DNA from: Streptomyces celluloflavus
GTDB lineage: Bacteria; Actinomycetota; Actinomycetes; Streptomycetales; Streptomycetaceae
Assembly: GCA_000720995.1 (NCBI GenBank)
Contig: JOEL01000006.1
Coordinates: 62,001-126,000, forward strand
Length of the DNA: 64,000 nucleotides
Direction: 5' to 3'
Shown: positions 36,354 through 62,278 of the stretch, piece after piece
Position numbering within the stretch: position 1 is the stretch's first letter
How the letters are laid out: every line of letters begins with the position of its first letter
Notes under the pieces: generated by a model
What the model saw: the letters and a program-made list of their open reading frames with translations, nothing else
Database searches by the model: none
What the model was told of the DNA's origin: nothing
Translations under genes and position numbers: made by a program

Positions 36354-36355
36354 CT
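36165..36355. mobile_element. 191-bp element with 19-bp perfect terminal inverted repeats (MITE-like)
   Basis: AGGGGGCTTCTGACGGATC (36165-36183) recurs exactly inverted at 36337-36355. The 153-bp interior has no credible gene, which is how a non-autonomous MITE looks. The right end overlaps the P450 stop codon. I see no clear target duplication at the flanks, so an alternative is a long-range structural repeat. Confidence 0.5.
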
Positions 36356-37583
36356 AGGCACGGTCCGGCGACGGCCGCCGCCCGGGGCACTCGGCCGGGG
36401 CGGGGACGGGTACGCGGGCCGTCGGCGCGGGGCGCACCAGGCGTCCGCGGAGCGTCCGGTACCGCAGGGTGGGCAGCTCGGGCTCCCGCTCGACGTGGTC
36501 CGCGTGGAACTCCGCGCCCGTCCTCTTCAGCGCCTCCAGGAGGGCCTCGACCACCGAGCGCGCCAGCGGCGCACCGGGGCAGTAGTGCTCTCCCGCCCCG
36601 AAGCTGAGCGAGCGCGAGGCGGCACCGCGGTCCTGTATGCGCAGGGGGGCCGGGTAGTGCTCGGGATCCAGATTGGCCGCGGCGAGGCAGAGGTTGACCC
36701 GGTCGCCCTCGTCGAGCCGGTACGGGCCGACGGAGACCGGCCCCCGCGCGTACCGGCTGGCGAACCGGAAGGGGGTGGCGAGCCGGAACACCTCCTCCCT
36801 GAGCCGGGGCACGGAAGTATGGCCGAGCAGGTCGCGGGGGATCCGCTCCCCCGCGACGCACAGGGCGGTGACGGTGGGATCGTGGGCCCCGGTGACCACC
36901 TGGGTGAGCAGCGCGGTGGCGGTCTCCGGGCCGAAGTCCGGGTCGTCCCACAGCTCCGCGACACCCGCCACGAACGGTGTCGGGCGCGCCGTCCGTGCCG
37001 CGCGCAGCCACTCGCGCAGCCCGTCGACCGAGGCGAGCGCCCGGTCGATCCGCTCCATGTCGAGGCGGGGCGTGGCCAGTTCGTCCATCACGGACCGGCT
37101 CAGCTCGATGAGGATCGCGGCGCCGGCGCGACCGGTCAGGGCGGCGACGACCTCCCAGGCCAGCGGACGCGCCACCTCGTCCAGCCAGTCGAAGGACTCC
37201 TCGCCCACGGCGGCGAGGCGTTCGTCGGCCACCCGGGCGCACCTGGCCCGCAGTTGCGGCGTCACCGCTCCGCGCAGCAGATGCAGGGAGACCGTGCGGA
37301 TGCGCTTGTGGTAGTCGGAGTCGGAGAAGACGGGCCAGTGGGCGAAGAACTCCTTGAGTCTGGACCGCCGTCTGCGGTCCTCCTCCGGGAGCGCGGCGAG
37401 CCGCTGGTCGGTGGAGCGCCGGGACCAGAACTCCCGGCTGGTCAGGATGTGCCGTACGTCGTCGGCACGGAAGGCGTAGAGGCCGCCGTTCTCGGCCGCC
37501 TCCTGGAAGGGGCAGGCCGCGGCCGCCTCGGCGAGCGCCGCGGCCGGGTCCTCGCGGCTGAAGTCGCCGAATACGTCAAGCAT
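36354..37583 (-). CDS. Cytochrome P450
   Basis: 409-residue soluble bacterial P450. Heme-thiolate loop LSFGAGEHYCPGAPLAR with Cys335; ExxR as REEVFR; I-helix VVTGAHDPTVT in place of the common AGxET, which keeps the Thr. It hydroxylates or otherwise oxidises a small molecule with electrons from a ferredoxin system not seen here. ATG overlaps the MOSC-gene stop by eight bases, so the two are translationally coupled. Its TAG stop lies within the inverted repeat of the 191-bp element, suggesting the 3' end was reset by insertion. Likely tailoring enzyme of the cluster to its right. Confidence 0.92.
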   Translation of the reverse strand: MLDVFGDFSREDPAAALAEAAAACPFQEAAENGGLYAFRADDVRHILTSREFWSRRSTDQRLAALPEEDRRRRSRLKEFFAHWPVFSDSDYHKRIRTVSLHLLRGAVTPQLRARCARVADERLAAVGEESFDWLDEVARPLAWEVVAALTGRAGAAILIELSRSVMDELATPRLDMERIDRALASVDGLREWLRAARTARPTPFVAGVAELWDDPDFGPETATALLTQVVTGAHDPTVTALCVAGERIPRDLLGHTSVPRLREEVFRLATPFRFASRYARGPVSVGPYRLDEGDRVNLCLAAANLDPEHYPAPLRIQDRGAASRSLSFGAGEHYCPGAPLARSVVEALLEALKRTGAEFHADHVEREPELPTLRYRTLRGRLVRPAPTARVPVPAPAECPGRRPSPDRA

Positions 37584-38334
37584 GGACGGCTCCGCCGGGC
37601 CGGGCCGGGGCCGGCGGAGCCGCCGGCCCGGCGTCCGGCGCGGTGGCGGCCGGGACCGAGGGTGAGGCCACAGCGGCGTTCGGTGCGGTGGCGCGGGACC
37701 TGGTCCGGTTCGAGACGTGGAACATCATCGCGGCGCGGTCCCAGTCGGGTTCCTCGTCGGCCATGGCGGTGATGCGCCGCAGCACGTCCTGCTCGTCGAG
37801 GATGGCGCCGACCGCCTCCGCCACCGTCACGTGCTTGGCGGGCCGCCACACCACCTCGACCGGGTCCCCGGCGGCGACGCGTCCCTCTTCGAGCACCCGG
37901 AGGTAGACCCCGGGGCGGCGGGCGCCGTTGAAGCGTTTGGCCCACCCCTTCTCCTGCATCCAGCCGCCGAATGTGCCGCAGGCCATACGTGGTGCCATGA
38001 CTTGCAGCAGCACCTCGCCCACCTGCCATTTCTCGGCGAGTACGGCTCCGCTCGCATCGAATCCGACGAGGTCGAGGTTCTCCCCGAACGCACCGTTGCG
38101 CAGGGGGTTCTGCAGGCGGTCCGACCACCAGTCGAGGTCCTCCCGCGCATAGGCGTAGACCGCCTGGAGTGCCCCGCCGTGGAAATCGGCGGCCTGCTCG
38201 TCGCCTTCGAGACCGAGTCTGCCGACGTTGACGCTTCCGTCGACGGGGAGTTTCCTGATTGCCGACCTGCCGCGGCGCGGAGCGAATTCAGCCGCAACGA
38301 TCGGACCCGTGTTGACAGAAATCACATTACCCAT
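37576..38334 (-). CDS. MOSC-domain protein (YiiM-like)
   Basis: 252 residues. MOSC core: VNVGRLGLEGDEQAADFHGG, AVYAYAREDLDWWSDRL, GAFGENLDLVGFD, VLLQVMAPRMACGTFGGWM (with the conserved Cys that ligates molybdenum in related proteins) and VYLRVLEEGRVAAGDPVEV. YiiM/YuaD types use molybdenum cofactor to reduce N-hydroxylated compounds. A Pro/Ala tail of about 45 residues is appended. ATG at 38334 is listed; an ATG ten codons earlier exists, and neither has a strong ribosome site. Coupled to the P450; the molybdenum link fits the nitrate reductase gene further right. Confidence 0.85.
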   Translation of the reverse strand: MGNVISVNTGPIVAAEFAPRRGRSAIRKLPVDGSVNVGRLGLEGDEQAADFHGGALQAVYAYAREDLDWWSDRLQNPLRNGAFGENLDLVGFDASGAVLAEKWQVGEVLLQVMAPRMACGTFGGWMQEKGWAKRFNGARRPGVYLRVLEEGRVAAGDPVEVVWRPAKHVTVAEAVGAILDEQDVLRRITAMADEEPDWDRAAMMFHVSNRTRSRATAPNAAVASPSVPAATAPDAGPAAPPAPARPGGAVHA

Positions 38335-38583
38335 GTGAATTACGCTAAGCGGTATCCTGTACACCCATCAACAGTTGCCTGGAAAATATGTCAGGTATCC
38401 GATCCCCAATCCCGCCCGGAAATCGCCGCGTTCGAAGCGGCGGGCAGTATTCCGCCGCAAACGCCCGGCGTGCTCCAGCGGTCCCGGAGCGAAATCCCGG
38501 ACCGCTGGCACGAATGCGCGCCGCGGGGAAGGAGGAAACCGGTGCCGGCCGTCACGCTCCCGTCGGGAAGAACGCGCCCGGAG

Positions 38584-39300
38584 TTACCGCACGCCCCGGG
38601 CGCGTGCCATCACGAAGAAGGCGGGGACATTCACGTGCCGCCCCTCCGCGGTGACCGTCCCCTGGTAGTCGAGGGGGGCCGTGGAGACGATGTCGAAGCC
38701 GGCCGCCGCCAGTTTGCGCTGGAGGGCGTCGTCCTCCCGGGCGACCGGCAGCGGGACCCGGTCGAAGACGAACCCGAACTTCTCCGCGGGACCGCCCCTG
38801 CCCTTCAGCTGTCCGAGGATGAAGTCCCTGCTGGCCGGGGCGAGTTCGTAGAAGAAGGCGCCGCCGCTGGAGCCGGCCAGGTGCGCCAGGGACGTGACCG
38901 CGCGGTCCAGTTCGTCGGGGGTGAAGGCGTGCAGGACGGTGCGGACGTACAGCGAGGCGTCACCGATCCGTTCGTGCAGCGCCGCGGCCTGCTCGGGCTG
39001 GAGCAGATCGAGCTGCTCGTACTCGACACCGGGGGCACCGTGGTTCTTCCGCGCCCGCTCCACGGCGCTCGGGGCCACGTCCACGCCGATCACCCGGTCG
39101 AAGTGCGTGGCGATGGCCGCTGTCTGCGCGCCGTCCCCGCAGCCGACGTCGATGACGGGCTTGGCGGGGTCGAGCACGCTGCCGAACAGGTGTATGTGGG
39201 CATGGGCCACGTAGGTGGGGTCCACATCCCACGGTGATGCGCCGGGCGTCGGGGGAAGGTCGGTCCAGAAGCGATCCCACATGGCCTCGAAGCGGCTCAT
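38584..39300 (-). CDS. SAM-dependent methyltransferase (class I)
   Basis: 238 residues. SAM-binding motif I VIDVGCGDGAQTAAIA, motif II region DRVIGVDVAPSAVERARK and YEQLDLL for motif III. Substrate not predictable; an O- or N-methylation of the cluster product is reasonable. ATG at 39300 has GAGAGGAAG upstream. About 250 bp separate it from the MOSC gene, which may share its transcript or have a separate promoter. Confidence 0.87.
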   Translation of the reverse strand: MSRFEAMWDRFWTDLPPTPGASPWDVDPTYVAHAHIHLFGSVLDPAKPVIDVGCGDGAQTAAIATHFDRVIGVDVAPSAVERARKNHGAPGVEYEQLDLLQPEQAAALHERIGDASLYVRTVLHAFTPDELDRAVTSLAHLAGSSGGAFFYELAPASRDFILGQLKGRGGPAEKFGFVFDRVPLPVAREDDALQRKLAAAGFDIVSTAPLDYQGTVTAEGRHVNVPAFFVMARARGVR

Positions 39301-39722: not shown

Positions 39723-40337
39723 TCAGCCCGGCGTCACCTCCACCAGTTCCCGGATGTACGGCACGAGTTCACGGAAGGCGGCGCCCCGGTGGCTGATGCG
39801 GTTCTTCCGCTCCGGCTCCAGTTGCGCGGCGGTCACCCTCTCGCCCAGCGGCTGGAAGACCGGGTCGTAGCCGAACCCGCCCGTGCCCTCGGGGGAGGTG
39901 CGCAGCACACCGGGCAGCTCCCCGAAGGTCACCCGCTCCGTGCCGTCGGGCAGGGCGAGCGCGGCGGCGCAGAGGTAGCGGGCGGTGCGGTGCGGGCCGT
40001 CGATGTCTTGCAGCTGCGCCAGGAGCAGGCGCAGATTGGCCTCGTCGTCGCCGTGCCGGCCGGCCCAGCGGGCGGAGAAGATGCCGGGCGCCCCGGAGAG
40101 GACGTCGACGCCGAGGCCGGAGTCGTCGGCGATGGCGGGCAGCCCGGTGGCACGGGCCAGGGCATGGGCCTTGAGCAGGGCGTTCTCGGCATAGGTGACC
40201 CCGGTCTCCGGCACATCGGGGATGTCGGGGTAGGCGTTGGCACCCACCAGGTCGTATGAGGGCGCCGCCTCACTCAGGATCGTCTTCAGCTCGACGAGTT
40301 TGCCCGAGTTGCGGGTGGCGAGGATCAACGTGTTCAT
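39723..40337 (-). CDS. rdgB: Non-canonical purine NTP pyrophosphatase (RdgB/HAM1)
   Basis: 204 residues; hydrolyses ITP, dITP and XTP to monophosphates, keeping deaminated purines out of nucleic acids. ILATRNSGKLVELKTIL at the start, DDSGLGVDVLSGAPGIFSAR for the metal/substrate site and GGFGYDPVFQP near the end are diagnostic. Elsewhere in actinobacteria rdgB usually follows rph; here it follows a transposase-like gene, with its ATG overlapping that gene's stop, so it is translationally coupled to a biosynthetic-cluster gene. Deaminating nitrite chemistry, which converts adenine/guanine to hypoxanthine/xanthine, would give it a protective meaning. Confidence 0.94.
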   Translation of the reverse strand: MNTLILATRNSGKLVELKTILSEAAPSYDLVGANAYPDIPDVPETGVTYAENALLKAHALARATGLPAIADDSGLGVDVLSGAPGIFSARWAGRHGDDEANLRLLLAQLQDIDGPHRTARYLCAAALALPDGTERVTFGELPGVLRTSPEGTGGFGYDPVFQPLGERVTAAQLEPERKNRISHRGAAFRELVPYIRELVEVTPG

Positions 40338-41671
40338 GGGTCAATCATCCAGTCCGGCCGGGGGCGTTGGGGTGATATCGCGGGCGTTCCGGAGCGCGGT
40401 GCGGGCGCTTCCTTTCCGGCGGCGGGAGGGGCCGGCGGGGCCGGGGCGGGACCGTCCGGCCGAAAGCCGCGGGCCGGGCAGGTGAGCCCGCCCGGCCGGG
40501 AAGCGCACAACGGGCCGAAGCCGAGCCATGCCGCGGTGTAGGCGGCGGACGCCAGCGTCACATGGCGGTGCCACCCGGCGAGCGATCTGCCGCTGAAGTC
40601 GCGCAGCCCGACGGCCTCGACGGCCCAGGCCGCCTCCCGGTCGACGCAGCGGGCCAGATCGGCGTACTCCACGAGCCGCTGCAAGGGGGTGTCGACCATG
40701 TCCGTCAGCCACAGGCGTTCGGGGGGCCGGTCCGGGTCGTCCCATTCGCCGACCAGCAGCCGCCGCGCGCCCGCCACGGCCTCCTCCGCCAGCCGGACCG
40801 GCACCGCGGCCGCGAGGGAGCGGCCGGCCGGCCGCGCGCCGCCCGGGGCGGTGTGCCGCACGGGCTGCCGGACGCTCCGGGCGGCCTCCAGGATGACCTG
40901 TGCGGAGAAGGAGCCGCGCCGGTATCCGGGCATGCACCGGTCGGCCACCGCGAGCCGGGTGGCGAGCGCCGCCTGGGCGAGCACCGGGGTGGCGTCCCGG
41001 GTGAACCGCGCCAGGGTGGCCCGGGTCGCGCCGCCGGGCACGTTCATCACCACCGGTCTGCCGCGGACCCCGGCGTCGCGGGGTGTGGTGAGGGCGGCGG
41101 TCGCCGCCCAGCCCTGCGGGGTGCTCCCGGCCGCGTCCGGCGACGGCTCCCCGGTCCCGGGCGCGCCCTCCCCCGGCAGGAACAGCAGCCAGTTGACCGG
41201 TACGGTCAGCTCCGGGGACGCCAGCCACACGCCGTACGCGAGTTGCCCCTGGAACGTCCTCCGCCGCCGTGGGTCGAACATCTCGTCGACGCCCACGGAC
41301 TGCTTGCCGGTCCTCGGGATGGCCATCGGGTGGACGACGAGCGCGCGGGCCAGCTCGGTCTTCTCCGCCCAGGCGGCCAGAGCCGCGCGGATGGGGCGCC
41401 AGTCCCAGGTCGAGTCGGCGATGAAGTGGTGCAGGCTCTGCGCCGCCGCCGGGTCGCCCGTGACCGCGGCGACGTTCCTGATCGACTTGCGGCCCTGGGC
41501 CGCGAGCAGGCCGTGCAGGTACTGCCGGGCCCTGAGTCGCTGGTCCTTGCGTCTCAGGGAGGAGAACAGCTCGGCGCAGAAGCCCTCCGGCACCTCGCGG
41601 ATGCCGTCCGTACAGGCCGGAACAGCGCACGGGCGGCCGACGGGCCCCGGCACGGCACCTCTGCCGGTCAC
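40334..41671 (-). CDS. IS701-family DDE transposase homologue, probably domesticated
   Basis: 445 residues. FCAELFSSLRRKDQRLRARQ, YLHGLLAAQGRKSIRNVAAV and SLHHFIADSTWDWRPIRAAL match the DDE_5/IS701 proteins often found as single genes in Streptomyces biosynthetic clusters. No terminal inverted repeats are evident at its sides, and it is joined by ATGA overlap to rdgB, so it behaves as a resident gene. The C-terminus is Pro/Ala-rich and eroded. Whether DDE catalysis survives is unclear. GTG at 41671 is listed; the N-terminal 25 residues are uncertain and a later GTG is possible. Confidence 0.75.
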   Translation of the reverse strand: MTGRGAVPGPVGRPCAVPACTDGIREVPEGFCAELFSSLRRKDQRLRARQYLHGLLAAQGRKSIRNVAAVTGDPAAAQSLHHFIADSTWDWRPIRAALAAWAEKTELARALVVHPMAIPRTGKQSVGVDEMFDPRRRRTFQGQLAYGVWLASPELTVPVNWLLFLPGEGAPGTGEPSPDAAGSTPQGWAATAALTTPRDAGVRGRPVVMNVPGGATRATLARFTRDATPVLAQAALATRLAVADRCMPGYRRGSFSAQVILEAARSVRQPVRHTAPGGARPAGRSLAAAVPVRLAEEAVAGARRLLVGEWDDPDRPPERLWLTDMVDTPLQRLVEYADLARCVDREAAWAVEAVGLRDFSGRSLAGWHRHVTLASAAYTAAWLGFGPLCASRPGGLTCPARGFRPDGPAPAPPAPPAAGKEAPAPRSGTPAISPQRPRPDWMIDP

Positions 41672-41878: not shown

Positions 41879-42658
41879 TCAGGCCCCGGCCATATGGGTT
41901 CCTCCGTCGACGTGGACGATCTCCCCGGTGGTCCTGGGGAACCAGTCCGACAGCAGGGCCACCACGGCGCGGGCGGCGGGTTCGGGGTCCTCCAGGTCCC
42001 AGCCGAGCGGCGCACGCGCCGTACTGGCCTCGGCCAACGCCTGGAAGCCGGGGATGGACTTGGCGGCGGTGGACCGGATGGGCCCCGCGGCCACCAGGTT
42101 GCAGCGGATACCCCGGCCGCCCAGTTCCCGGGCGAGGTAACGGGACGTCGCTTCCAGGGCCGCCTTGCTGACGCCCATCCAGTCGTAGTAGGGCCATGCC
42201 TGCTGGGCGTCGGAGTCCATGCCCACCACCGCGCCGCCGCGCCGTTCCAGCAGTCCGGCGACGGCGACCGTCAGCGACTTGAGCGAGAAGGCCGAGATCT
42301 CCACCGAGGTGGCGACCGAACTCCACGCCGTGTTCAGGAAGTTGCCGCCGAGTGCGTCCTGGGGTGCGTACGCGATGGAGTGCACCACGCCGTCGAGGGC
42401 CGGGTCGGGCCCCAGGTGCTCGGCGACCCGGTCGGCCAGCGAGTCCAGCTGCCCCTGGTCGCACACGTCCAGGTCCACCAGGGGAGCCGGCTCGGGGAGC
42501 CGCTTGGCGATCAGCTCGACGAGGCTGCGCCGTCCGTAGGCGGTCAGCACCACTCGCGCGCCCTCGCGCTGGGCGAGGCGGGCCACGTGAAAGGCGATGG
42601 ACTTCTCCGTGAGCAACCCTGTGACCAGGATGTTCTTTCCGCTGAGTATGCCGCTCAC
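41879..42658 (-). CDS. fabI: Enoyl-ACP reductase (FabI/InhA type)
   Basis: 259-residue short-chain dehydrogenase of the FabI branch, reducing trans-2-enoyl-ACP with NAD(P)H. The family start GILSGKNILVTGLLTEKSIAFHVARLA, VVHSIAYAP and the catalytic Tyr-x6-Lys (YDWMGVSKAALE) are present; ends VDGGTHMAGA. In the cluster it may saturate an extended aryl chain bound to ACP. Because the host needs its own enoyl reductase for fatty acids, a duplicate could also be a resistance copy if the product hits FabI/InhA. It starts four bases after the PhzE stop. Confidence 0.9.
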   Translation of the reverse strand: MSGILSGKNILVTGLLTEKSIAFHVARLAQREGARVVLTAYGRRSLVELIAKRLPEPAPLVDLDVCDQGQLDSLADRVAEHLGPDPALDGVVHSIAYAPQDALGGNFLNTAWSSVATSVEISAFSLKSLTVAVAGLLERRGGAVVGMDSDAQQAWPYYDWMGVSKAALEATSRYLARELGGRGIRCNLVAAGPIRSTAAKSIPGFQALAEASTARAPLGWDLEDPEPAARAVVALLSDWFPRTTGEIVHVDGGTHMAGA

Positions 42659-42662: not shown

Positions 42663-44624
42663 TCACATCTCCTTGGTCCGCGTACCGCCGGCCGCCGCGG
42701 CGGCCGGCGGGGCCGTGCGGCCGACGGTTCCGGTCCGCCGGCCCGGGGCGAGTCCGGCCAGCAGGCCCGCGACGATGGGCGGGCCGTTGCGGGTGAGGAC
42801 GGACTCCGCGTGGAACTGCACGGAGGCGAAGTGCGGCGCCCGCAGGGCGTGCACCTCGCCCGTGCGGCGGTCCCTGCTGACCTCGACCCGTGCCGCGTGG
42901 GGTCCCTCGACCACGTCGCGGGTGCTGTGGGCGACGAAGCTGTTGTAGAAACCGACGTGCTCCCGGCGGCCGAAGAGGTCGATCTCGCGCTGGAGCCCTT
43001 GGTTGGGTACCTCCTTGCGGACGACGTCGAGGCCGAGCAGCCTGCTGAGCACCTGGTGGCTCAGGCACACCGCGAGGAACGGCCACCGCCCGTCGAGGAG
43101 TGCGCGGATCGCGCCCTCCAAGTGCGCGATCTTCGGATCGGACGTGGCGCACGGGTCGCCGGGCCCCGGCCCCATGACGACGACGTCGTGGCCGGCGAAG
43201 GTGTACGGCTCGTCGAACCGGCGGGCCGTCACCTCCATGCCCATACTGCGCAGTTGCATCTCGATCATGGAGGTGAAGGTGTCCTCGGCATCGACCACGA
43301 GGACCCGCTGCCCGGCGAGCCGGTCCCGCGGCACGTCCGGCGCCACCTCGCCGTCCGCCAGCCAGAACCCGGCCAGCGCGTCGTTGCGGCTGCGCAGCGC
43401 CGCCCGCACCTCGGGATGGTCGCGGAACCCGGTGGGCGCGCGCCCCTCCAGGGCGGCGATGAGCCCGGCGGCCTTCGCCCGGGTCTCGGCCACCTCGGCG
43501 GCCGGCCGGGAATGGCGTACGAGGGTGGCGCCGACCCCGATGGCGACCCGGCCCGCGCGGTCGATGTCGGCGGTGCGGATCAGGATGGCGGAGTCCAGCG
43601 TCCGGCCGCCGCGCTCATCGCGGCCGATGAGCGCGGCGACACCGCTGTAGTAGCCGCGCCCCTCCGGCTCGTACCGGGCGATGACCCGGCAGGCGCTCTC
43701 CAGCGGACTGCCGGTGACGGTGGGCGCGAACAGCGTCTCGCGCAGGATGTCCTGCGGCTCGCGCCGGGTGCGGCCCTCGATGAAGTACTCGGTGTGCGCG
43801 AGCCGGGACATCTCCCGCAGATAGGGGCCGTCGACCCCGACGCCGTCGGAACAGACCCGGCTCATCATCTTCAGTTCCTCGTCGACCACCATGTACAGCT
43901 CGTCGGTCTCCTTGCGGTCGGCGAGGAAGTCCAGTACGCCGGGCAGGGTGGGGCCGCCGTCCGGGTAGCGGTAGGTGCCGCTGATCGGGTTCATCACCGC
44001 GGTTCCGCCGTGCAGGCTCACATGGCGTTCGGGCGAAGCACCGACGAAGGTGCGGTCGCCGGTGTGGATGAGGAAGACCCAGTACGCGGACGACTCGCGC
44101 TCCAGCAGGCGCCGGAAGAAGGAGAGCGCGCTGTGCAGGCCGTAGTCGCCGATCTCGGTGACGAAGGACCGCCTGATGACGAAGTTGGCCCCGAGCCCGG
44201 TGCCGATCTCGTCCGCGATCACCCGCTCCACGGTGTCCGCGTAGGCGTCGTCGGACACGTCGAAGTCCCCGCCGACAAGCCGGATTCCGGTGTCCGGGAC
44301 GCGGCGCAGGACCTCGGCGAGCGGCACCGCGGCCTGCTCCCGCACGGTCAGCGCGAGGAGCGGCGCGCCGTCGTCGGCGCAGGTGAAGCCGCGCTCGGCG
44401 ATCTGCCGGAAGGGCACGACCGCCAGCACCTCGTGGTACGGACCGGGCCGGTCCGGCGTGCGCGGCAGGGGCAGCTCGGCGAGCGAGGCGCACTCGCCCA
44501 CCTCGCCGAGGACCACGTCGACCAGGCCGCTCGCGCCGCTGACGGGGCGGTGCAGCAGGGCGCAGGGCCCGGGAGCGGCCGACAGGACGCGGCCGAGGGC
44601 GTCGGCCGGCGGTGCCCCGGTCAT
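42663..44624 (-). CDS. phzE: 2-Amino-2-deoxyisochorismate synthase (PhzE-like, TrpE-TrpG fusion)
   Basis: 653 residues. The N-terminal chorismate-binding domain ([40 protein letters not shown]-like region, [13 protein letters not shown]) is fused to a class I glutamine amidotransferase with triad Cys in LAVCLSHQ and His-Glu in [10 protein letters not shown]. PhzE-type enzymes aminate chorismate at C2 and keep the enolpyruvyl group, giving ADIC; the adjacent PhzD argues for this rather than anthranilate synthase. ATG has GGAGG seven bases upstream and overlaps the PhzD stop. Confidence 0.9.
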
Positions 44625-45244
44625 CCGAGCGCCTCCTTCGTGGTGAGGACCACGGCGCAGGTGCGGGAGGCGTGGTCGAGGGTCCTGCGGTGGTCGTCCT
44701 CGCTGAAGTCGGCGACGGCGTCGGCCACCAGGAAGGGCTGGATGTCGTGGGTGTACGCCTCCAGCGCGCTGGTCAGCACGCCGACGTGCGCGTACACCCC
44801 GCACACCACGAGCTGGTCGCGTCCGTGCCGGCGCATCCGCTCCAGCAGGTCGCTCTTGAAGAAGGCGCTGTAGCGCCACTTGGTGAACACCCAGTCGTCC
44901 TCGGCGGGGGTGAGGGGTTCGACGATCTCGCGGTCGGCGCGGCCGGCCCGCATCCCCTGGCCCCAGAAGTCGGCCAGCAGGCCGCGCTGCTCAGGTGTCA
45001 TATCGCCGGGCTGTGCCGTGTAGGCGATCGGCATACCGGCGCCGCGGCAGTGGGCGAGCAGGGCGCCGGTGTTGCGGACGAGTTCGGCGCGCAGGGCGTC
45101 GGGCAGTGGCCGCAGGAAGAACCGCTGCATGTCGTGGACGAGCAGGACGGCCCGCGCGGGATCGATCGTCCACCGCGGCACAGGGGCGGGCAGGTCCCCG
45201 CTGGCCGGCATCGGGTAGGGCTCGATGGGCGGGATGCTGGGCAT
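44621..45244 (-). CDS. phzD: Isochorismatase-family hydrolase PhzD
   Basis: 207 residues. Asp38 in [11 protein letters not shown] and Lys122 in [10 protein letters not shown] fall at exactly the catalytic residue numbers of PhzD, and GVYAHVGVL lacks the usual isochorismatase Cys, as PhzD does. It cleaves the enolpyruvyl ether of ADIC to trans-2,3-dihydro-3-hydroxyanthranilate plus pyruvate. ATG at 45244 has GAGAGGAG upstream. Stop overlaps the PhzE start (ATGA), so the two are made together. Confidence 0.93.
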
Positions 45245-54520: not shown

Positions 54521-54978
54521 CGCAGTCCTCCCTTCCCGAGACGGCCGCGGCCGGCGACCTGGCGGCGTGGATCACCCGCCCCGGCGGGGCCGAGACACTG
54601 GCCGCGCGCATGGGCATCGAACTCCTCGAAGCGACCCCGCAGCGCCTGGTCGGCACCATGCCGGTGGCGGGCAACAAGCAGCTGTACGGCATGCTGCATG
54701 GCGGCGCGTCCGTCGTGCTGGCCGAGACCCTCGGCTCCATCGGCGCGGCGATGCACGCGGGCGGCGGACACATCGCCCTCGGTGTCGACGTCAACGCCAC
54801 CCACCACCGGCCGGTGCGCAGCGGCATCGTGACCGGTGTGGCCACGGCCCTCAACCTGACCCCGACCATCGCCTCGTACGAGGTGATCATCACCGACGAG
54901 GCCGGCCGGCGCCTGTGCACCGCCCGGATCACCGTCGCCCCGAACACGGCGGAGGTGATCCGCCGCGCACGGTCGTGA
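54517..54978 (+). CDS. Hotdog-fold thioesterase (PaaI/MenI type)
   Basis: 153 residues. Hotdog core NKQLYGMLHGGASVVLAETLGSIGAAM with the MLHGG loop, then GVDVNATHHRPVRSGIVTGVA. It hydrolyses aroyl- or acyl-thioesters (1,4-dihydroxy-2-naphthoyl- or phenylacetyl-type substrates in relatives). ATG overlaps the ligase stop (ATGA). In the cluster it could release the product from the ACP or proofread carriers. Confidence 0.88.
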   Translation: MTQSSLPETAAAGDLAAWITRPGGAETLAARMGIELLEATPQRLVGTMPVAGNKQLYGMLHGGASVVLAETLGSIGAAMHAGGGHIALGVDVNATHHRPVRSGIVTGVATALNLTPTIASYEVIITDEAGRRLCTARITVAPNTAEVIRRARS

Positions 54979-54993: not shown

Positions 54994-55058
54994 CCGCTCC
55001 CGCACTCCCGTACCCCGTGTTCCCGTGCCCCCGTACTCCCGCACCCCGTGCTCCCGTC
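54994..55058. repeat. C-rich microsatellite-like repeat (CCCGTN-type)
   Basis: The gap between the thioesterase and nitrate reductase genes is a run of degenerate six-base units around CCCGTA/CCCGTG/CCCGCA. It probably arose by slippage and may affect spacing or read-through. Confidence 0.5.
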
Positions 55059-55074
55059 GGCCGAGGACTCCCCC

Positions 55075-57164
<2,090 letters not shown>

Positions 57165-57168
<4 letters not shown>

Positions 57169-58538
57169 GCGGCATCGTCGTCATCGGCACCGGGCCGGCC
57201 GGACACCGCCTGGTCACCCGGCTGCGCCGGCACGACGGCACGGCGGCGGTACGAGTCATCGGTGCGGAACGGCGGCCCGCCTACAACCGTGTGCTGCTCA
57301 CCGACGTCCTGGCCGGACGGCTGCGGCCGGGGCAGCTGGAGCTGCCCGCCCATGACGGCGGGGTACGGGTGCACCAGGGGGTGACCGCGCTCGGCATCGA
57401 CCGCCGCGGCAGGCTCGTCCACACCGACGACGGCCGCGTCCACGGCTACGACCGGCTGGTCCTGGCCACCGGCGCGCGTCCGGTGCTGCCCGTGCTGCGC
57501 GGTCTGCTCCGTCCGGACGGCGGCATGGCCGAGGGCGCCGCCGCGGTGCGCACCCTCGCGGATGCCGCGCGGCTGCCGGGGGAGGGTCCGGCGGTGGTCC
57601 TGGGCGGCGGTGTGCTGGGCGTGGAAACCGCCCTGGCCCTGCGCCGCTCGGGCCGTGACGTGGTCCTCGTCCACCGCAACCGCCGCCTGATGAACCGCCA
57701 GTTGGACGACCGGAGCGCGGATCTGCTCGCCGGGCAGGTGCGGAGCGAGGGTGTGGTGGTCGAGTGCGGCAGGAGGGTGCGGGCGTTCGCACCGGGCAGG
57801 GTCCTCCTCGACGACGGCCGTACGGTGCCCTGCGCCGCTCTGCTGGTCTGCGCGGGCGTACGTCCGGTGACCGGGCTGGCCCGGACCGCGGGGCTCGCGG
57901 TGCGCCGCGGTGTGGTGGTGGACGGTCTGCTGCGCACCAGTGACCCCCGCATCCACGCGATCGGGGACTGCGCCGAGTACGACGGCACGGTGGCGGGCCG
58001 CGTCACGGCCGCGTGGGACCAGGCGGACACCCTCGCCGCCCTGCTGACCGGCGGCACGGGGCACTACCGCGGTACCCCGCCGGCCACCAGACTGCGCGGG
58101 CCCCGGCCCGAACTCGCCGTCATCGGCCGCCCGGACGCCTCCGGCGCGGAGACCGTCCTGCTCTCCGACAGCGAGAGGTACGCCCGGCTGGTCCTCGACG
58201 CCGGGGGGAGGCTGCTGGGCGGCATCCTGTTCGGGCTCCCGGAGGCCGCGGCGGCCGCGGGACAGCACTACGCCCACGGTCTCCCGCTGCCGCCGGCCAG
58301 GCTCGCCTTCCTGCTGGGCACCCGCCCGGTGCGCACGGCGCCGGCCCGTCCGGCCGACGATCTGGTGGTGTGCCACTGCAACATCGTCACCCGCGGGCAG
58401 CTGGCCGCCGCCTGGCGCAGCGGCAGCACCAGCGCGGCCCAACTCGTCGCCGCCACCCGGGCCACCACCGGATGCGGCGGCTGTCTGGCCGAGATCACGG
58501 AGTTCTCGCGGGAGCTGGCCGGGGACGGGGCGGCGTGA
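57165..58538 (+). CDS. FAD/NAD(P)-dependent reductase with BFD-like [2Fe-2S] domain (nitrate reductase partner)
   Basis: 457 residues. VVIGTGPAGHRLVTRL binds FAD, VVLGGGVLGVETALAL binds NAD(P)H, and HAIGDCAEYDG is the second FAD contact. The C-terminus has four Cys in DDLVVCHCNIVTRGQ and TTGCGGCLAEI, the BFD-like [2Fe-2S] domain seen in NirB and NasB. It passes electrons from NAD(P)H to the nitrate reductase. ATG at 57165 overlaps the upstream stop; an ATG two codons earlier is possible. Coupled by GTGA overlap to the next reductase. Confidence 0.87.
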
Positions 58539-59743
58539 TCCGGACACTCGTCGTGGTGGGTTTCGGCATGGCCGCCCACCGGCTGCTGGACCGGCTGTGC
58601 GCGGAGGATTCCGGCCACTCCTGGCGGGTGGTCGTGCTCTCCGAGGAGCCGCGGCCGGCGTACAACCGGATCGCGCTCTCCTCCTACCTGGCGGGGTGCG
58701 AGGCCGGTGCCCTGTCGCTGCCGTCCGGCGCGATCCTGGGCAGCCCCCGGGTGGATGTACAGCTCGGCCGTGCCGCGGTCCGTCTCGACCGCGCGCGGCG
58801 CACGGTGACCGCGGACGACGGCACGGCGTACCGCTACGACGCCCTGGTCCTCGCCACCGGGGCACGGGCGTCCGTGCCTCCCGTCCCCGGCCACGACCTG
58901 CCCGGATGCTTCACTTACCGCTCGCTGGCCGACGCGGAAGCCATCAGAGCGGCCGCGGCGTTCTCGCCCGGCGGTGGTGCGGTGGTCGTCGGCGGCGGTC
59001 TGCTGGGGCTGGAGGCGGCGGACGGACTGCGGCGGCTCGGACTCGGACCGCACGTGGTGGAACGGGCCCCGCATCTGATGCCCGCCCAGCTCGACGCCGA
59101 CGGCGCGAGGCTGGTGGAACGGCTGGTCGGCGCGGCCGGGCTGCGGGCGTACTGCGGTCGTCCGCTGCTGGCCGTCGAGCCGTACCGGCGGGGCCTCCTG
59201 CGGGTCCGGCTGGCCGATGCGACGGTGCTCGACGCGGCCCTCGTCGTCTTCTCGTCCGGGGTGCGGCCCCGCGACGAACTGGCCGCGGCGGCGGGCCTGG
59301 CCACCGCCGAGCGGGGCGGCTGCCTGGTCGACGCGGCCTGCCGCACCGAGGACCCGCGCATCTTCGCGATCGGGGACTGCGCGGCCGTGGAGGGCCGCAG
59401 CTACGGTCTGGTCACCCCCGGCTACCGGATGGCCGACGCCGTGGCCGGGCAACTGCTGGGCCGCCCGGAGGTGTTCACGTACAGCGGGCCGGTGACACGG
59501 CTGAAACTGCCCGGTGTCGACGTGGCCGGTTTCGGTGACACCCATGCCCTGACGCCCGGAGCCCTCCAGATCAGCTACCGCAAACGGCAAGCGGGCCACC
59601 ATATTTACGCCAAGATTGTCCTGGACAAAGCGGCCGAGACGCTGCTCGGCGGCATTCTCGTCGGTGGAGCGGCGGCCCGGTCACCGCTGCCCGCATTACT
59701 CGGGCAGAAGTTGCCCTCACCTGTGGAGGAACTCCTTCCGTGA
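58535..59743 (+). CDS. NirB-N-terminal-like FAD/NAD(P) oxidoreductase without siroheme domain
   Basis: 402 residues matching only the flavin module of nitrite reductase large subunit: VVVGFGMAAHRLLDRL, PRPAYNRIALSSYLAG, VVVGGGLLGLEAADGL and FAIGDCAAVEG. NirB normally continues with Fe-S and siroheme domains for another 400 residues; this ends at SPVEELLP. It may be a second electron carrier for the nitrate reductase. Codon 388 is TTA (59696-59698), so full-length translation should need bldA tRNA. GTG start overlaps the upstream stop. Confidence 0.85.
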   Translation: MIRTLVVVGFGMAAHRLLDRLCAEDSGHSWRVVVLSEEPRPAYNRIALSSYLAGCEAGALSLPSGAILGSPRVDVQLGRAAVRLDRARRTVTADDGTAYRYDALVLATGARASVPPVPGHDLPGCFTYRSLADAEAIRAAAAFSPGGGAVVVGGGLLGLEAADGLRRLGLGPHVVERAPHLMPAQLDADGARLVERLVGAAGLRAYCGRPLLAVEPYRRGLLRVRLADATVLDAALVVFSSGVRPRDELAAAAGLATAERGGCLVDAACRTEDPRIFAIGDCAAVEGRSYGLVTPGYRMADAVAGQLLGRPEVFTYSGPVTRLKLPGVDVAGFGDTHALTPGALQISYRKRQAGHHIYAKIVLDKAAETLLGGILVGGAAARSPLPALLGQKLPSPVEELLP

Positions 59744-59839: not shown

Positions 59840-59873
59840 GCTTTGTCGCTCATCGGATCACCAAGGGAGCAGT

Positions 59874-60686
59874 ATGCAACTGGAATGGTTCGGAACAGGC
59901 CCCTTCTTCGGTCTTCTCGGCACCCCGGAAATCCTCGCGGCAGGCCGGCGGATAAACATCGCGGGAGTGCGGCAGCAGACGCTCGTCGCCATGCTCTCGC
60001 TGTATGCCGGGAACACCGTCGGGGCGAGCTGGCTGATCGAGGGCGTCTGGGGCGGCCGTCCACCCGCGACGGCGGACGCCCAGTTACGCATCTGTGTCTC
60101 GCGGCTGCGCCGCCAGCTGGCCGAGGCCGGAATACCGGGCCTGATCAGCACCGACAGCCGCGGTTACCGCCTGGCCGTACCACGGGACCGGGTCGACGCG
60201 CACCGCTTCACCGATCTGCTGGCGACGTCGCGGAAGGCCGAGGCCGAAGGGGACTGCGTGGAAGCCGTGCGGCTGCTGCGCACCGCCCTCGGCCTGTGGC
60301 GCGGCCCCGCCGCGGGAGGTCTGACGAGCCCGCTGGTACGGGCCGCGGCAGAGCGTCTCGACGAGGAGCGGATGGGAACGTTCGAGCACTGCTTCGGCCT
60401 GGAACTCAGGCTCGGCCGGCACCATCAAATCCTGCCGGAACTGATGGCCCACGCCAACGAGTCCCCGTTCCGGGAACGGCTTCAGTTCCAGCTCATCACG
60501 GCCCTTTACCGTTCCGGCCGTCAGGTGGACGCTCTGCGCGCATACCGGGAGATCAGGAGAAAATTCGCGGAGGAAATCGGAATCGAGCCCTCGCAGTTCC
60601 TGCGCACCCTGGAGAGAAAGATTCTGGCGCAGAGCCCGGAATTGAACAGCAGAACTTACGTCCAGGACACCATGATTCCGGCGTAA
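59874..60686 (+). CDS. SARP-family transcriptional activator (AfsR/DnrI-like)
   Basis: 270 residues: OmpR-like winged helix (GVRQQTLVAMLSLYAGNTVG, AQLRICVSRLRRQL, STDSRGYRLAV) plus bacterial transcriptional activation domain (VDAHRFTDLL..., RSGRQVDALRAYREIRRKFA, GIEPSQFLRTLERKIL). SARPs bind heptameric repeats near -35 and switch on antibiotic clusters. Codon 71 is TTA (60084-60086), tying it to bldA and development. ATG at 59874 has AAGGGAG upstream. Likely activator of the divergent promoter at 52.7 kb. Confidence 0.92.
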   Translation: MQLEWFGTGPFFGLLGTPEILAAGRRINIAGVRQQTLVAMLSLYAGNTVGASWLIEGVWGGRPPATADAQLRICVSRLRRQLAEAGIPGLISTDSRGYRLAVPRDRVDAHRFTDLLATSRKAEAEGDCVEAVRLLRTALGLWRGPAAGGLTSPLVRAAAERLDEERMGTFEHCFGLELRLGRHHQILPELMAHANESPFRERLQFQLITALYRSGRQVDALRAYREIRRKFAEEIGIEPSQFLRTLERKILAQSPELNSRTYVQDTMIPA

Positions 60687-60729
60687 TTGCGGCGTCGCGG
60701 ACATTCCCGTGCGCAGCCGAAGGCGCGAC

Positions 60730-60765
60730 CGCCGGTGGTGCCCGGTGCCCCGGGGACCACCGGCG
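60730..60765. terminator. Bidirectional terminator between SARP and exporter genes
   Basis: Perfect 10-bp arms CGCCGGTGGT/ACCACCGGCG (60730-60739, 60756-60765) between convergent genes. Confidence 0.65.
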
Positions 60766-60778
60766 CGCACACAGCGGC

Positions 60779-62278
60779 TCATCCCGCGGCCGCCCGGCGC
60801 GACAACCGCATCAGCCCCCACACGGTGGCGGCCACCGCGAGCGTCAGCACCACCGCCAGCACGGTCGACAGCTCCATCGCCTCGGCGTAGCCGCCGGCTC
60901 CGTGCCGGGAGCCCAGCGCGGCGTAGAAGATCGCGCCGATCACGGCGACCCCGGTCGCCGAGGCGAACTGCTGAGCCGTCGTCAGGATGCCGGATGCCGC
61001 TCCGGCCTGCTGCGGCCGCACCAGAGCGAGGGTGGCGCCGTTGAGCGCCGGGAGCACGAGGCCGTTGCCGGTGCCGACGATCGTCAGCGCCACGATGACG
61101 AGGTACAGCGGGACGTCGCCGGACGACACCCGGAGCGCCACGATCAGCAGGCACAGGCCCGCGGCGATGAGCGCCGTGCCGAGCAGGACCACCGGCAGTC
61201 CGTGGCGCGCGATGAGCCGCTTGCCCACCATCGAGGCCACCCCGAACATCACGCCCATCGGCGCGAAGGTCAGGCCCGCCCCCACCGCGCTCCGGCCCAG
61301 CCCCGCCTGGAGCAGCAGCGTGAGGGTGAACATGAAGCTGCCGAAGTAGAGATAGAAGGCGAAGCCGGCGAGCAGTCCGATGCGGAACGGCGGGCTGTGG
61401 AAGAGGGAGAGTTCGAGGGTCGGCGTACCGCCCCGGCGCGTCAGCCGGCGCTGCCACCCCACGGTCGCGGCTCCGGCCGGGACCGCCGCGATCATGCAGA
61501 GCCAGGTCCACGGCGGCCAGTGCTCGTCGCGCCCGAGCGACAGCGGGATCACGAGCAGCGCGAGCGACAGGGCGATGCCCAGCACGCCGAGCGGATCGGC
61601 CGAGCTGCGGCGCCCGGACGCGGGGGCGTCGGCGGAGCGGCCCGGCAGCACCCGGAGCGCGATCAGCGCGGCCACCAGGCCGATGGGGCCGTTGATCAGG
61701 AAGATGACGCGCCAGCCGAGCCCGAAGACGTCGGCCTCCAGCAGGACCCCGCCGAGCACCTGCCCGGCGATGGAGCCGATGCCGGCCGTCGCGCCGTACC
61801 AGGCGATGGCACCCGGTCGCGCGGCGGCGGGGAAGACCGCGGTGACCGTGGCCAGGACCTGGGGCACCATCGCGGCCCCGGCCAGCCCCTGGAGCAGCCG
61901 GAACACGATGAGCTGGGCCGGGTCCGCGGCCAACCCGCACAGCACCGAGGCGACGGCGAAGCCGAGCGTGCCGATGACGAACATGCGCCGGTGGCCGAGC
62001 AGGTCGCCGAGCCGGCCACCGGTGATCATGCCGCTCGCGTAGGCGAAGGCGTACCCGCCGACGATCAGTTCCAGGGCGGCCTGTCCGGCGTGCAGGCTCT
62101 CGGAGAGCGAGGGCGCCGCGACATTGGCGACGAAGAAGTCGAACTGGGCCATGAAGACCGCGACGAGCAGCACGGCGAGCATGCGTCCGGTCCTCGGGGG
62201 TGAGGCGGAGGCATCGGCGGCCGGTGCTGCCGGGGGCGGCGCCGCACCCGGGAGTGCGGCGGGGTTCTCCGTGGTCAT
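60779..62278 (-). CDS. MFS exporter, DHA2 (EmrB/QacA, 14 helices)
   Basis: 499 residues with about fourteen hydrophobic segments. After a Pro/Ala-rich cytoplasmic N-terminus, LVAVFMAQFDFFVANVAAPSL and GGRLGDLLGHRRMFV (motif A) identify the drug:H+ antiporter-2 family; VFRLLQGLAGAAMVPQ is helix 4. Likely exports the cluster product and confers self-protection. ATG at 62278 with TGGGA upstream. Divergent from an Rrf2 regulator across 116 bp, which probably represses it. Confidence 0.91.
   Translation of the reverse strand: MTTENPAALPGAAPPPAAPAADASASPPRTGRMLAVLLVAVFMAQFDFFVANVAAPSLSESLHAGQAALELIVGGYAFAYASGMITGGRLGDLLGHRRMFVIGTLGFAVASVLCGLAADPAQLIVFRLLQGLAGAAMVPQVLATVTAVFPAAARPGAIAWYGATAGIGSIAGQVLGGVLLEADVFGLGWRVIFLINGPIGLVAALIALRVLPGRSADAPASGRRSSADPLGVLGIALSLALLVIPLSLGRDEHWPPWTWLCMIAAVPAGAATVGWQRRLTRRGGTPTLELSLFHSPPFRIGLLAGFAFYLYFGSFMFTLTLLLQAGLGRSAVGAGLTFAPMGVMFGVASMVGKRLIARHGLPVVLLGTALIAAGLCLLIVALRVSSGDVPLYLVIVALTIVGTGNGLVLPALNGATLALVRPQQAGAASGILTTAQQFASATGVAVIGAIFYAALGSRHGAGGYAEAMELSTVLAVVLTLAVAATVWGLMRLSRRAAAG

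What the first reader, a model, noticed from the sequence alone, without database searches (positions are those of the whole stretch)
36354..62278. Candidate cluster for a 3-hydroxyanthranilate-derived diazo (o-diazoquinone) or other N-N product
Seen: PhzC-type DAHP synthase, PhzE, PhzD and an EntA/DhbA-like SDR side by side, an ACP-adenylation loader, KS, KS-like protein, ACP, FabG and FabI on one arm; a second adenylate-forming enzyme, thioesterase and full nitrate reductase set on the other. Known: PhzE plus PhzD give dihydro-3-hydroxyanthranilate; acyl-CoA-ligase homologues CreM and AvaA6 diazotise arylamines with nitrite and ATP; cremeomycin is an o-diazoquinone from an ortho-aminophenol. 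Inference: 3-hydroxyanthranilate has the same ortho amine-phenol pair, so diazotisation would give an o-diazoquinone; if a ketide side chain sits ortho to the amine, ring closure to a cinnoline is another outcome. I do not recall a described cluster with this exact gene set.
Basis: partly seen in the sequence, partly recalled or inferred. Interest (0 to 1): 0.88.

Follow-up and report, generated by a model that had tools for sequence, protein, structure and literature searches.

The report
Diazo-forming gene cluster with purine-cleaning genes
A soil-bacterium (Streptomyces) gene cluster appears to build a small aromatic acid, lengthen it, and turn its amine into a reactive nitrogen-nitrogen group with nitrite, next to an unusual set of genes that look made for cleaning up damaged DNA and RNA building blocks.

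Summary
[quoted passage not shown] solved chains incl. Tri17 at 278-500 bits, next 62). A 3-HAA-primed PKS with a diazotase is well supported; the product is not shown.

Three corrections. (1) The nitrate reductase set is not core: intact only in the window among 8 clusters compared, decayed in S. typhae and G023, not seen in the other five. The host also has CreD/CreE-type (ANS) nitrite genes elsewhere. (2) The closest known clusters are ava/cma (same PKS-diazotase logic, other starter) and pzm (3-HAA plus CreM homologue, no PKS reported). (3) The conserved block starts at 34213: HD nucleotidase, nucleoside hydrolase, P450, YiiM-like MOSC, methyltransferase and a second Ham1. At the thresholds used the P450 (2 of 392 sampled genus genomes) and hydrolase (2 of 295) occur only with this cluster, under purifying selection. 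I read this arm as purine-nucleotide sanitation against nitrosated or N-hydroxylated bases (inference).

New variant of a known kind; the purine arm is the unexpected part.

The parts
34213..34878 (-). HD-domain nucleotidase (YfbR-like, HD_3); left edge of the conserved block
   Evidence: Pfam HD_3 171 bits; 91% identical in S. typhae, 84% in G023, dN/dS 0.2
35035..35976 (-). inosine-uridine-type nucleoside hydrolase
   Evidence: PF01156 245 bits; found in 2 of 295 genus genomes at E<=1e-45, both in this cluster
36354..37583 (-). cytochrome P450 with heme Cys motif FGAGEHYCPG but no (A/G)Gx(D/E)T(T/S) I-helix motif
   Evidence: found in 2 of 392 genus genomes at E<=1e-70, both in this cluster
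37576..38334 (-). MOSC-domain protein, YiiM-like (hydroxylaminopurine reductase family)
   Evidence: PF03473 106 bits; NF008577 88 bits, below its 294-bit cut-off
38584..39300 (-). SAM methyltransferase, substrate unknown
   Evidence: PF13649 44.5 bits; dN/dS 0.11-0.18
39723..40337 (-). second Ham1/RdgB (dITP/XTP pyrophosphatase) copy
   Evidence: PF01725 198 bits; TIGR00042 156 bits over its 145 cut-off; another copy elsewhere in all 8 genomes searched, second copy only in the 3 with the arm
40334..41671 (-). IS701-family transposase-like protein, at the same place in 3 of 3 arm-bearing clusters; role unclear
   Evidence: NF033540 227 bits (cut-off 150); 81% and 66% identity in typhae and G023
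41879..42658 (-). FabI/InhA-type enoyl-ACP reductase, second copy in the genome
   Evidence: NF005908 397 bits (cut-off 299); other copy at C4, 68% identical
42663..44624 (-). PhzE (2-amino-2-deoxyisochorismate synthase)
   Evidence: 725 bits to solved chain 3r74, next 84 (PhzE identity of 3r74 recalled)
44621..45244 (-). PhzD (isochorismatase-type hydrolase giving dihydro-3-hydroxyanthranilate)
   Evidence: 302 bits to solved PhzD 1nf9
45354..46124 (-). DhbA/EntA-type dehydrogenase, proposed to aromatise to 3-HAA
   Evidence: TIGR04316 337 bits over its 300 cut-off
46261..47439 (-). class-II DAHP synthase
   Evidence: PF01474 402 bits
47493..48245 (-). FabG-type ketoreductase
   Evidence: TIGR01830 297.9 bits over 297.75
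48242..48523 (-). free acyl carrier protein (extender ACP by analogy with AvaA2)
   Evidence: PF00550 54 bits; DSL serine motif
48557..49582 (-). KS-like chain-length factor; active-site Cys absent (NGATSG in its place)
   Evidence: PF00109; best solved match 4ddo_A 45 bits, 6kxd_B 29 bits
49680..50801 (-). ketosynthase with Cys-His-His motifs, HR type II PKS type
   Evidence: best solved match 6kxd_A, 175 bits; motifs ACAAS, HGTGT, GHT
50798..52633 (-). starter ACP fused to an aryl-acid adenylation domain
   Evidence: PP-binding + AMP-binding; benzoate-CoA ligase 2v7b 241 bits
52826..54520 (+). ATP-dependent diazotase-family enzyme
   Evidence: NF058622 370 bits, equivalog cut-off 975 not reached; 9xb8 500, 8ztz 305, Tri17 278 bits, next 62; motif GDSAHDAHI
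54517..54978 (+). hot-dog (4HBT/EntH-like) thioesterase, proposed chain release
   Evidence: TIGR00369 88 bits over its 36.6 cut-off
55048..57168 (+). assimilatory nitrate reductase catalytic subunit NasC; not conserved in the cluster family
   Evidence: NF047855 729 bits, below its 1100 cut-off; remnants in typhae
57165..58538 (+). NasB-type FAD reductase with BFD [2Fe-2S] domain
   Evidence: Pyr_redox_2 + Fer2_BFD
58535..59743 (+). NirB-type FAD reductase without siroheme domain
   Evidence: TIGR02374 373 bits over its N-terminal part only
59877..60686 (+). SARP regulator (homologous part; true start not settled)
   Evidence: BTAD 150 bits; conserved in typhae and G023
60779..62293 (-). EmrB-type MFS exporter
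   Evidence: TIGR00711 174 bits, below its 230 cut-off; homologue (54-91%) in all 7 other clusters
62395..62850 (+). Rrf2-family regulator
   Evidence: TIGR00738 85 bits over its 73 cut-off; NsrR model only 25 bits
62894..64000 (-). LuxR-family regulator, runs past the window to about 64807
   Evidence: GerE domain

Best explanation
This is a biosynthetic gene cluster for an N-N bonded (diazo-derived) aryl-ketide. Proposed order: DAHP synthase raises shikimate flux; PhzE and PhzD turn chorismate into dihydro-3-hydroxyanthranilate; the DhbA-type SDR aromatises it to 3-hydroxyanthranilate (3-HAA); the ACP-adenylation didomain loads 3-HAA on its own ACP; KS/CLF with the free ACP extend it with malonyl units; FabG, a fatty-acid-synthase dehydratase and perhaps FabI reduce the chain; the 4HBT thioesterase releases the acid; the diazotase activates nitrite with ATP and diazotises the ring amine, which the ortho phenol stabilises as an o-diazoquinone, or which closes onto the ortho side chain (indazole or cinnoline). 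Nitrite comes from the in-cluster nitrate reductase and/or the ANS genes elsewhere in the genome. The left arm (Ham1, HD nucleotidase, nucleoside hydrolase, YiiM-like MOSC) probably removes deaminated or N-hydroxylated purine nucleotides. Shown here: gene families, order, conservation, co-occurrence. Inferred: every reaction, the order, the product and the role of the arm.
For: Diazotase-family placement: AvaA6 model 370 bits, next-best model 128; the top four of 85 solved sequences are 9xb8, 8ztz and two Tri17 entries at 278-500 bits, then a drop to 62 (Tri17 identity from passages of PMC11705231); GDxxHxxHI in 31 of 36 family rows, and GDxxHxxH in all 36, against 0 of 11 other ANL ligases tested. 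3-HAA route. PKS. ACP-A, KS, CLF, ACP, FabG, diazotase, 4HBT and an MFS exporter at one locus in 8 of 8 clusters. Diazotase-family genes go with the nitrite lyase CreD across the sampled genus: 25 of 34 genomes with one have CreD, 26 of 164 without (from; relatedness not corrected). Arm.
Against: The AvaA6 equivalog cut-off (975) is not met, so substrate and even diazotisation are by homology; Tri17 of the same family N-nitrosates a hydrazone. The activities of 9xb8 and 8ztz are unknown to me (one search found no paper). AV19 keeps the core but no PhzE or PhzD in the 45 kb fetched and only 51-57% homologues elsewhere; in G060 and G005 the nearest PhzE/PhzD lie at another locus; so 3-HAA as the starter is secure only for the window, typhae, G023, S. 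thermodiastaticus and G145. No dehydratase gene was recognised in the block. No AvaB or AvaA7 homologue was recognised, but I had no sequence of either to search with. S. typhae has internal deletions in its cluster FabG and a decayed nas set, so conservation there may be of a dying cluster.
Confidence: 0.68

Rival explanations
1. Diazotisation-dependent deamination, as in ava/cma: the amine is diazotised only to be removed, giving a 3-hydroxyphenyl-ketide acid without N-N bond.
For: Same HR type II PKS plus diazotase logic as ava/cma (PMC10777205); three SDRs are present.
Against: All three SDRs have other clear assignments (FabI, DhbA, FabG); the paper compares AvaA7 kinetics with NADPH-dependent sugar epimerases as its family, and no such extended SDR was found among the ORFs scanned. 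I could not search with the AvaA7 sequence.
Confidence: 0.15
2. The 52826-54520 enzyme is an N-nitrosating or azide/triazene-type enzyme on a non-aryl-amine nitrogen, or couples the diazonium to a second unit (hydrazone, as proposed for penzonemycin).
For: Tri17, same family, N-nitrosates a hydrazone and accepts many amines (PMC11705231 passages); penzonemycins carry a hydrazone on a 3-HAA core (PMC9323291).
Against: No hydrazine-forming gene was recognised among the ORFs scanned; the ortho-aminophenol made by the same cluster is an adequate substrate.
Confidence: 0.15
3. The left arm makes or modifies a purine (P450 N-hydroxylation, methylation, then nucleotide to base by Ham1, HD nucleotidase and nucleoside hydrolase), either a second product or a part joined to the aryl-ketide, rather than cleaning up damage.
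For: Pyrophosphatase and nucleosidase genes serve 8-azaguanine biosynthesis (PMC7109123 passages); the arm has its own P450 and methyltransferase and was found only with this cluster.
Against: No purine-ring-altering gene (GTP cyclohydrolase type) was recognised among the ORFs scanned; the cluster Ham1 is close to the other RdgB-type copies (68-74%).
Confidence: 0.3
4. FabI is a resistance copy of the target, so the product inhibits enoyl-ACP reductase, rather than a chain-reducing enzyme.
For: Second, diverged FabI next to PhzE; other copy elsewhere, 68%; kept in 5 of 8 clusters and lowest dN/dS of the genes tested (0.13 and 0.10).
Against: An ER is a natural HR-PKS partner; no target data.
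Confidence: 0.3

Closest known systems
ava (avenalumic acid, Streptomyces sp. RI-77) and cma (p-coumaric acid, Kutzneria albida) clusters
   Same: Aryl-acid ligase, two ACPs, KS, CLF, KR (FabG in ava), then ATP-dependent diazotase on an ortho-aminophenol acid (PMC10777205)
   Different: Starter 3,4-AHBA from AvaH/AvaI, here 3-HAA from PhzE/PhzD/SDR; starter ACP here fused to the ligase; here a thioesterase gene beside the diazotase and a FabI; nitrite there by ANS genes in the cluster; no AvaA7-type gene recognised here; diazotase far below the AvaA6 equivalog cut-off
pzm cluster (penzonemycins, Streptomyces sp. SCSIO 40020)
   Same: DAHP synthase, PhzE-, PhzD- and SDR-type genes to 3-HAA plus a CreM homologue (PMC9323291)
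   Different: pzm is proposed to use N-acylation and an acetolactate synthase product, has ANS genes, and no PKS is mentioned in the parts read; loci like it exist separately in G005, G060, G023 and typhae genomes with AMP-ligases only 26-29% identical to the window's
Triacsin N-nitrosylase Tri17 (8tf7, 9bq0)
   Same: Same diazotase/nitrosylase family, 278 bits, shared motif
   Different: Native substrate a hydrazone; the tree puts the window clade in the other half
cremeomycin CreM
   Same: ATP plus nitrite diazotisation in an o-diazoquinone pathway (review passages; structure of cremeomycin recalled)
   Different: No PKS (recalled); CreM sequence not available here, so not compared directly
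8-azaguanine ptn cluster
   Same: Pyrophosphatase and nucleosidase genes beside N-N chemistry (PMC7109123 passages)
   Different: Uses a putative NO synthase and GTP cyclohydrolase; no diazotase mentioned in the passages seen

Membership tests
ATP-dependent diazotase/N-nitrosylase family (AvaA6, CmaA6, Tri17, CreM) | Sequence closer to this family than to acyl-CoA ligases | tested here: met
   370 vs 128 bits; 278-500 vs 62 bits; tree
ATP-dependent diazotase/N-nitrosylase family (AvaA6, CmaA6, Tri17, CreM) | 3-aminoavenalumate diazotase equivalog score (NF058622 >= 975) | tested here: not met
   370 bits: same family, not AvaA6 itself
ATP-dependent diazotase/N-nitrosylase family (AvaA6, CmaA6, Tri17, CreM) | Turns ATP, nitrite and an amine into a diazo or N-nitroso product | not testable with these tools
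   needs enzyme assay
Phenazine-type 3-HAA route | PhzE rather than TrpE/ICS; PhzD rather than isochorismatase | tested here: met
   (identity of 3r74 and 3r77 as Phz proteins recalled); TrpE models far below cut-off
Highly reducing type II PKS | KS with catalytic Cys plus Cys-less CLF, discrete ACP and KR | tested here: met
   CLF match to 6kxd_B weak
ava/cma-type cluster | 3,4-AHBA synthase pair in the cluster | tested here: not met
   none among the ORFs scanned; PhzE/PhzD instead
ava/cma-type cluster | AvaA7-type NADPH denitrification enzyme | tested here: inconclusive
   no extended SDR among the ORFs scanned; AvaA7 sequence not available
pzm-type cluster | ANS genes, N-acetyltransferase and acetolactate synthase in the cluster | tested here: not met
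   ANS genes are at C5, not in the cluster; no NAT or acetolactate synthase among the ORFs scanned
Assimilatory nitrate reductase | NasC equivalog cut-off 1100 | tested here: not met
   729 bits, best of the 25 models listed; 69% identical to a NasC of G023 in the same NasC-NasB-NirB order
ANS nitrite pathway (CreE/CreD) | CreD over NF052556 cut-off beside a CreE-type gene, anywhere in the genome | tested here: met
   G000:C5:22607-25971, CreD 751 bits joined, outside the cluster; no NCBIfam model matched the CreE-type query, which is named by its place beside CreD
YiiM 6-hydroxyaminopurine reductase | NF008577 cut-off 294 | tested here: not met
   88 bits, better of 2 models: YiiM-like MOSC only
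RdgB/Ham1 pyrophosphatase | TIGR00042 cut-off 145.35 | tested here: met
   155.7 bits

The most novel reading that the evidence does not exclude
Nitrous-acid chemistry inside a cell deaminates and N-modifies purines, and this cluster carries its own nucleotide-pool cleaning line for it: Ham1 hydrolyses (d)ITP/XTP or hydroxylaminopurine triphosphates, the HD nucleotidase and nucleoside hydrolase take the monophosphate to the free base, and the YiiM-like MOSC protein reduces N-hydroxylated bases. It would be the first self-protection module known to me against the by-products of a diazotase pathway. The bolder form is that the arm's P450 and methyltransferase make an N-oxidised purine that is joined to the diazonium of the 3-HAA ketide.
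Probability: 0.3. Interest if true: 0.78.

Novelty: new variant of a known kind. Interest (0 to 1): 0.62.

Why it matters
Diazo and other N-N natural products are rare, reactive and medicinally useful. This cluster family joins a starter and a release enzyme not described with diazotase PKSs in the papers I saw, so it predicts a new ortho-diazo, indazole or cinnoline scaffold and gives a clean assay for the diazotase. The decay of the nitrate reductase set in two close relatives bears on a question raised for ava-like clusters, 72 of 134 of which lack the ANS genes (PMC10777205): the nitrite source seems exchangeable. If the purine arm protects against nitrosative damage, it shows how producers survive making nitrous acid.

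Tried and rejected
Nitrate reductase as the obligatory nitrite source: rejected as a fixed feature after finding only DNA-level remnants between the thioesterase and the SARP gene in S. typhae (pieces of NasC and of the two reductases, 80-89% DNA identity) and in G023 (NirB tail, 73%), and none at E<=1e-8 in the fetched stretches of S. thermodiastaticus, AV19, G145, G060 and G005. It stays a plausible source in the window itself.

Idea that in G005 and G060 the separate PhzE/PhzD/CreE/CreD locus must feed this diazotase because no second diazotase was found at E<=1e-60: dropped after one search showed that those loci carry their own distant AMP-ligase (27 and 29% to the window's) and a gene that by eye is an arylamine N-acetyltransferase, so they look like pzm clusters.

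Transposase at 40334 as a recent insertion: rejected, since it sits at the same place in typhae and G023 and its dS (0.17, 0.62) is like that of its neighbours, though its protein is the least conserved of the arm (81%, 66%); why it is kept is unexplained.

AsnB-like gene beside the core in G060, G145 and G005 (read by eye): a 64-71% homologue lies 4-6 kb right of the window, but beyond the conserved block and not in the fetched typhae or G023 stretches; left out.

Identity of solved chains 9xb8 and 8ztz: no paper found. Literature on 3-HAA with HR type II PKS, cinnoline or indazole biosynthesis, and nitrate reductase in diazo clusters: nothing matching in the listings seen. Product reports for the three named strains: of 34 papers 10 were listed, none by title and abstract about this cluster; one reports another (RiPP) cluster of S. 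thermodiastaticus JCM 4840. Structure prediction was not run, because sequence placement was already clear for the family and a model could not decide the substrate.

The motif GDxxHxxH does not by itself mark every diazotase: the AMP-ligases of the pzm-like loci lack it, and I do not know whether CreM or Pzm18 has it.

Full report
WHERE. The window is G000:C6:62001-126000 of an 8.68 Mb genome in 193 contigs. Its nearest named relatives in this cluster are Streptomyces; the 'genus' searches are of its own genus.

WHAT IS THERE. The 3-HAA route is firm: PhzE scores 725 bits against solved chain 3r74 (labelled 'anthranilate/para-aminobenzoate synthases component I'; that it is PhzE is recalled) and 84 against the next; PhzD scores 302 against 1nf9 (phzD), 283 against 3r77 (labelled probable isochorismatase, a PhzD by recall) and 191 against vibriobactin isochorismatase; the SDR passes the DhbA cut-off (337 over 300). 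The KS has Cys-His-His motifs; the KS-like partner lacks the Cys. The KS is closest to 6kxd_A (175 bits; that 6kxd is the ishigamide KS-CLF Iga11-Iga12 is recalled); the KS-like protein matches solved KS chains only weakly (4ddo_A 45 bits, 6kxd_B 29 bits). The starter ligase is a fused ACP-adenylation protein nearest to benzoate-CoA ligases.

THE SECOND LIGASE. It scores 370 bits with NF058622 (3-aminoavenalumate diazotase) against 128 for the next model, but the equivalog cut-off is 975, so it is a family member and not AvaA6. Of 85 solved sequences matched (60 shown), the first four are 9xb8 (500 bits), 8ztz (305) and two Tri17 entries (278 each); the fifth has 62. Tri17 is identified by the review PMC11705231 (passages); the functions of 9xb8 and 8ztz are not known to me. 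A tree of 38 rows, 37 different, puts the window with its PKS-bearing relatives in one clade of 9 rows (97/97), sister to the 9xb8 clade, and Tri17 and 8ztz in the other half. GDxxHxxHI is in 31 of 36 family rows, and the shorter GDxxHxxH in all 36 (the five exceptions end in M, L or V); it is in 0 of 11 other ANL ligases tested. The motif is my own observation, without a stated function, and the AMP-ligases of the pzm-like loci lack it.

RELATIVES. A protein search of 199 genus genomes, the window's own included, found 35 with a family member at E<=1e-60; a contig scan gave S. typhae p1417 (93%), S. thermodiastaticus JCM 4840 (80%) and Streptomyces sp. AV19 (79%). I compared 8 clusters: window, typhae, G023, thermodiastaticus, AV19, G145, G060, G005 (40-56 kb each outside the window). 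ACP-A, KS, CLF, ACP, FabG, diazotase, 4HBT and an MFS exporter are at one locus in all 8. PhzE and PhzD are in the cluster in 5 of 8 (not AV19, G060, G005). FabI is in 5 of 8 (not G145, G060, G005). The left arm is in 3 of 3 of the nearest clade (window, typhae, G023) and, at E<=1e-8, in none of the fetched stretches of the other five, apart from a 37% transposase homologue in G145. I fetched five more distant relatives too (G142, G092, G002, G158, G080), which carry other clusters; I read them by eye as built on a fused aminodeoxychorismate-synthase-like protein, and G002 also has 3-HAA genes. The surroundings of the remaining family members were not examined.

NITRITE. The cassette NasC, NasB-type and NirB-type FAD reductase lies between thioesterase and SARP. 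In S. typhae the same gap holds pieces of them, in G023 a NirB tail; the other five have none. The same three genes in the same order, with a transporter that looks NarK-like by eye, form a separate locus in G023, 69% identical for NasC. Most simply, the cassette was present in the ancestor of the nearest clade and has been lost twice. It is intact in 1 of the 8 clusters. CreD and a CreE-type gene are elsewhere in the window's genome (G000:C5:22607-25971); CreE-type is named by its place beside CreD, since no NCBIfam model matched it. CreD over cut-off is present in 7 of these 8 genomes (all but S. thermodiastaticus) against 51 of 199 sampled genus genomes (the window's own gene is split there and not counted). 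Over the 198 other genomes, 25 of 34 with a diazotase-family gene and 26 of 164 without have CreD (Fisher p 9e-11); relatedness is not corrected, and in several genomes the two are parts of one other cluster. The window genome's ANS locus has its own ligases, so its nitrite may serve another product. AV19 has a CreE-type gene in its cluster.

THE LEFT ARM. HD nucleotidase, nucleoside hydrolase, P450, MOSC, methyltransferase, Ham1 and an IS701-like gene run in the same order in typhae and G023. The P450 was found in 2 of 392 genus genomes at E<=1e-70, the nucleoside hydrolase in 2 of 295 at E<=1e-45: the window and G023 each time (only a few first-look candidates per genome are scored there, and typhae was reached by another route). 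dN/dS of the arm enzymes is 0.18-0.36 (typhae) and 0.11-0.32 (G023), in the range of the core (the typhae FabG value is spoiled by its deletions). The Ham1 is an extra copy: all 8 genomes have one elsewhere, only the 3 arm-bearing ones have a second. YiiM is described as a hydroxylaminopurine resistance protein (title and abstract start of PMC5818509, listing) and YiiM/YcbX as reducing hydroxylaminopurine to adenine (abstract start of PMC3831636, listing); that yeast HAM1 is named for hydroxylaminopurine sensitivity is recalled. The MOSC protein scores only 88 bits with that model (cut-off 294), so YiiM-like is a resemblance. Together the four activities fit cleaning of deaminated or N-hydroxylated purines; that nitrous acid deaminates purines is established, the rest is inference. 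A biosynthetic purine role is the main rival, since the ptn cluster for 8-azaguanine holds a pyrophosphatase-domain protein and a nucleosidase (passages of PMC7109123).

COMPARISON. PMC10777205 (part 1 of the text, the Discussion and passages) gives ava and cma: 3,4-AHBA on a starter ACP, extender ACP, KS-CLF, KR, dehydratase from fatty acid synthesis, an unknown thioesterase, then diazotase and NADPH denitrification. The window has the same logic with another starter, a fused starter ACP and a thioesterase gene next to the diazotase. PMC9323291 (parts 1 and 2 of 5) gives pzm: 3-HAA genes and a CreM homologue, with no PKS mentioned there. The review does not contain 'nitrate reductase' (0 times) but mentions nitrate and nitrite reductases as a possible nitrogen source for alanosine (passage). 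In the listings I saw no cluster with this gene set; these are searches of open-licence papers only.

VERDICT. A new variant of the diazotase-PKS kind. The finding's chemistry is plausible and its core well supported; the stress on nitrate reductase is not; the purine arm, outside the finding, is the most surprising part.

Noticed in passing
L009/L084 (S. typhae), cluster FabG: Two internal deletions (about 89 and 136 bp) shorten the ketoreductase ORF; with the decayed nas genes this suggests the cluster is eroding in that strain.
   Followed up: partly
G000:C5:22607-31346: Separate nitrous-acid locus: CreD, a CreE-type gene, BBE-type oxidase and two AMP-ligases; a second possible N-N cluster in the same genome.
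   Followed up: partly
window 52634-52825: The intergenic region between the divergent ACP-A and diazotase genes holds the word TCGAGTAG twice, a possible regulator site.
   Followed up: no
window 40334-41671: IS701-family transposase-like gene kept in place in three clusters with dN/dS 0.33-0.62; related genes (38-42%) also lie near the pzm-like loci of G060 and G023.
   Followed up: partly
G005:C1:3550-3561 kb, G060:C5:434-460 kb, G023:C1:7303-7319 kb, G199:C27:12-56 kb: pzm-like loci (3-HAA genes, CreE-type/CreD, distant AMP-ligase; in G199 spread over some 40 kb) occur in 4 of the 8 genomes that hold this cluster.
   Followed up: partly
G142, G092, G158, G080 (L051-L054, L057-L060): A different, recurring cluster with a 45-48% identical diazotase beside a fused aminodeoxychorismate-synthase-like gene, a dehydrogenase and an NRPS-like gene (by eye); CreD lies within 20 kb of the diazotase in all four.
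   Followed up: no
window 22182-29449: Run of MFS, aldo-keto reductase, luciferase-like monooxygenase and GAPDH genes in a stretch of strongly negative GC skew, outside the conserved block.
   Followed up: no
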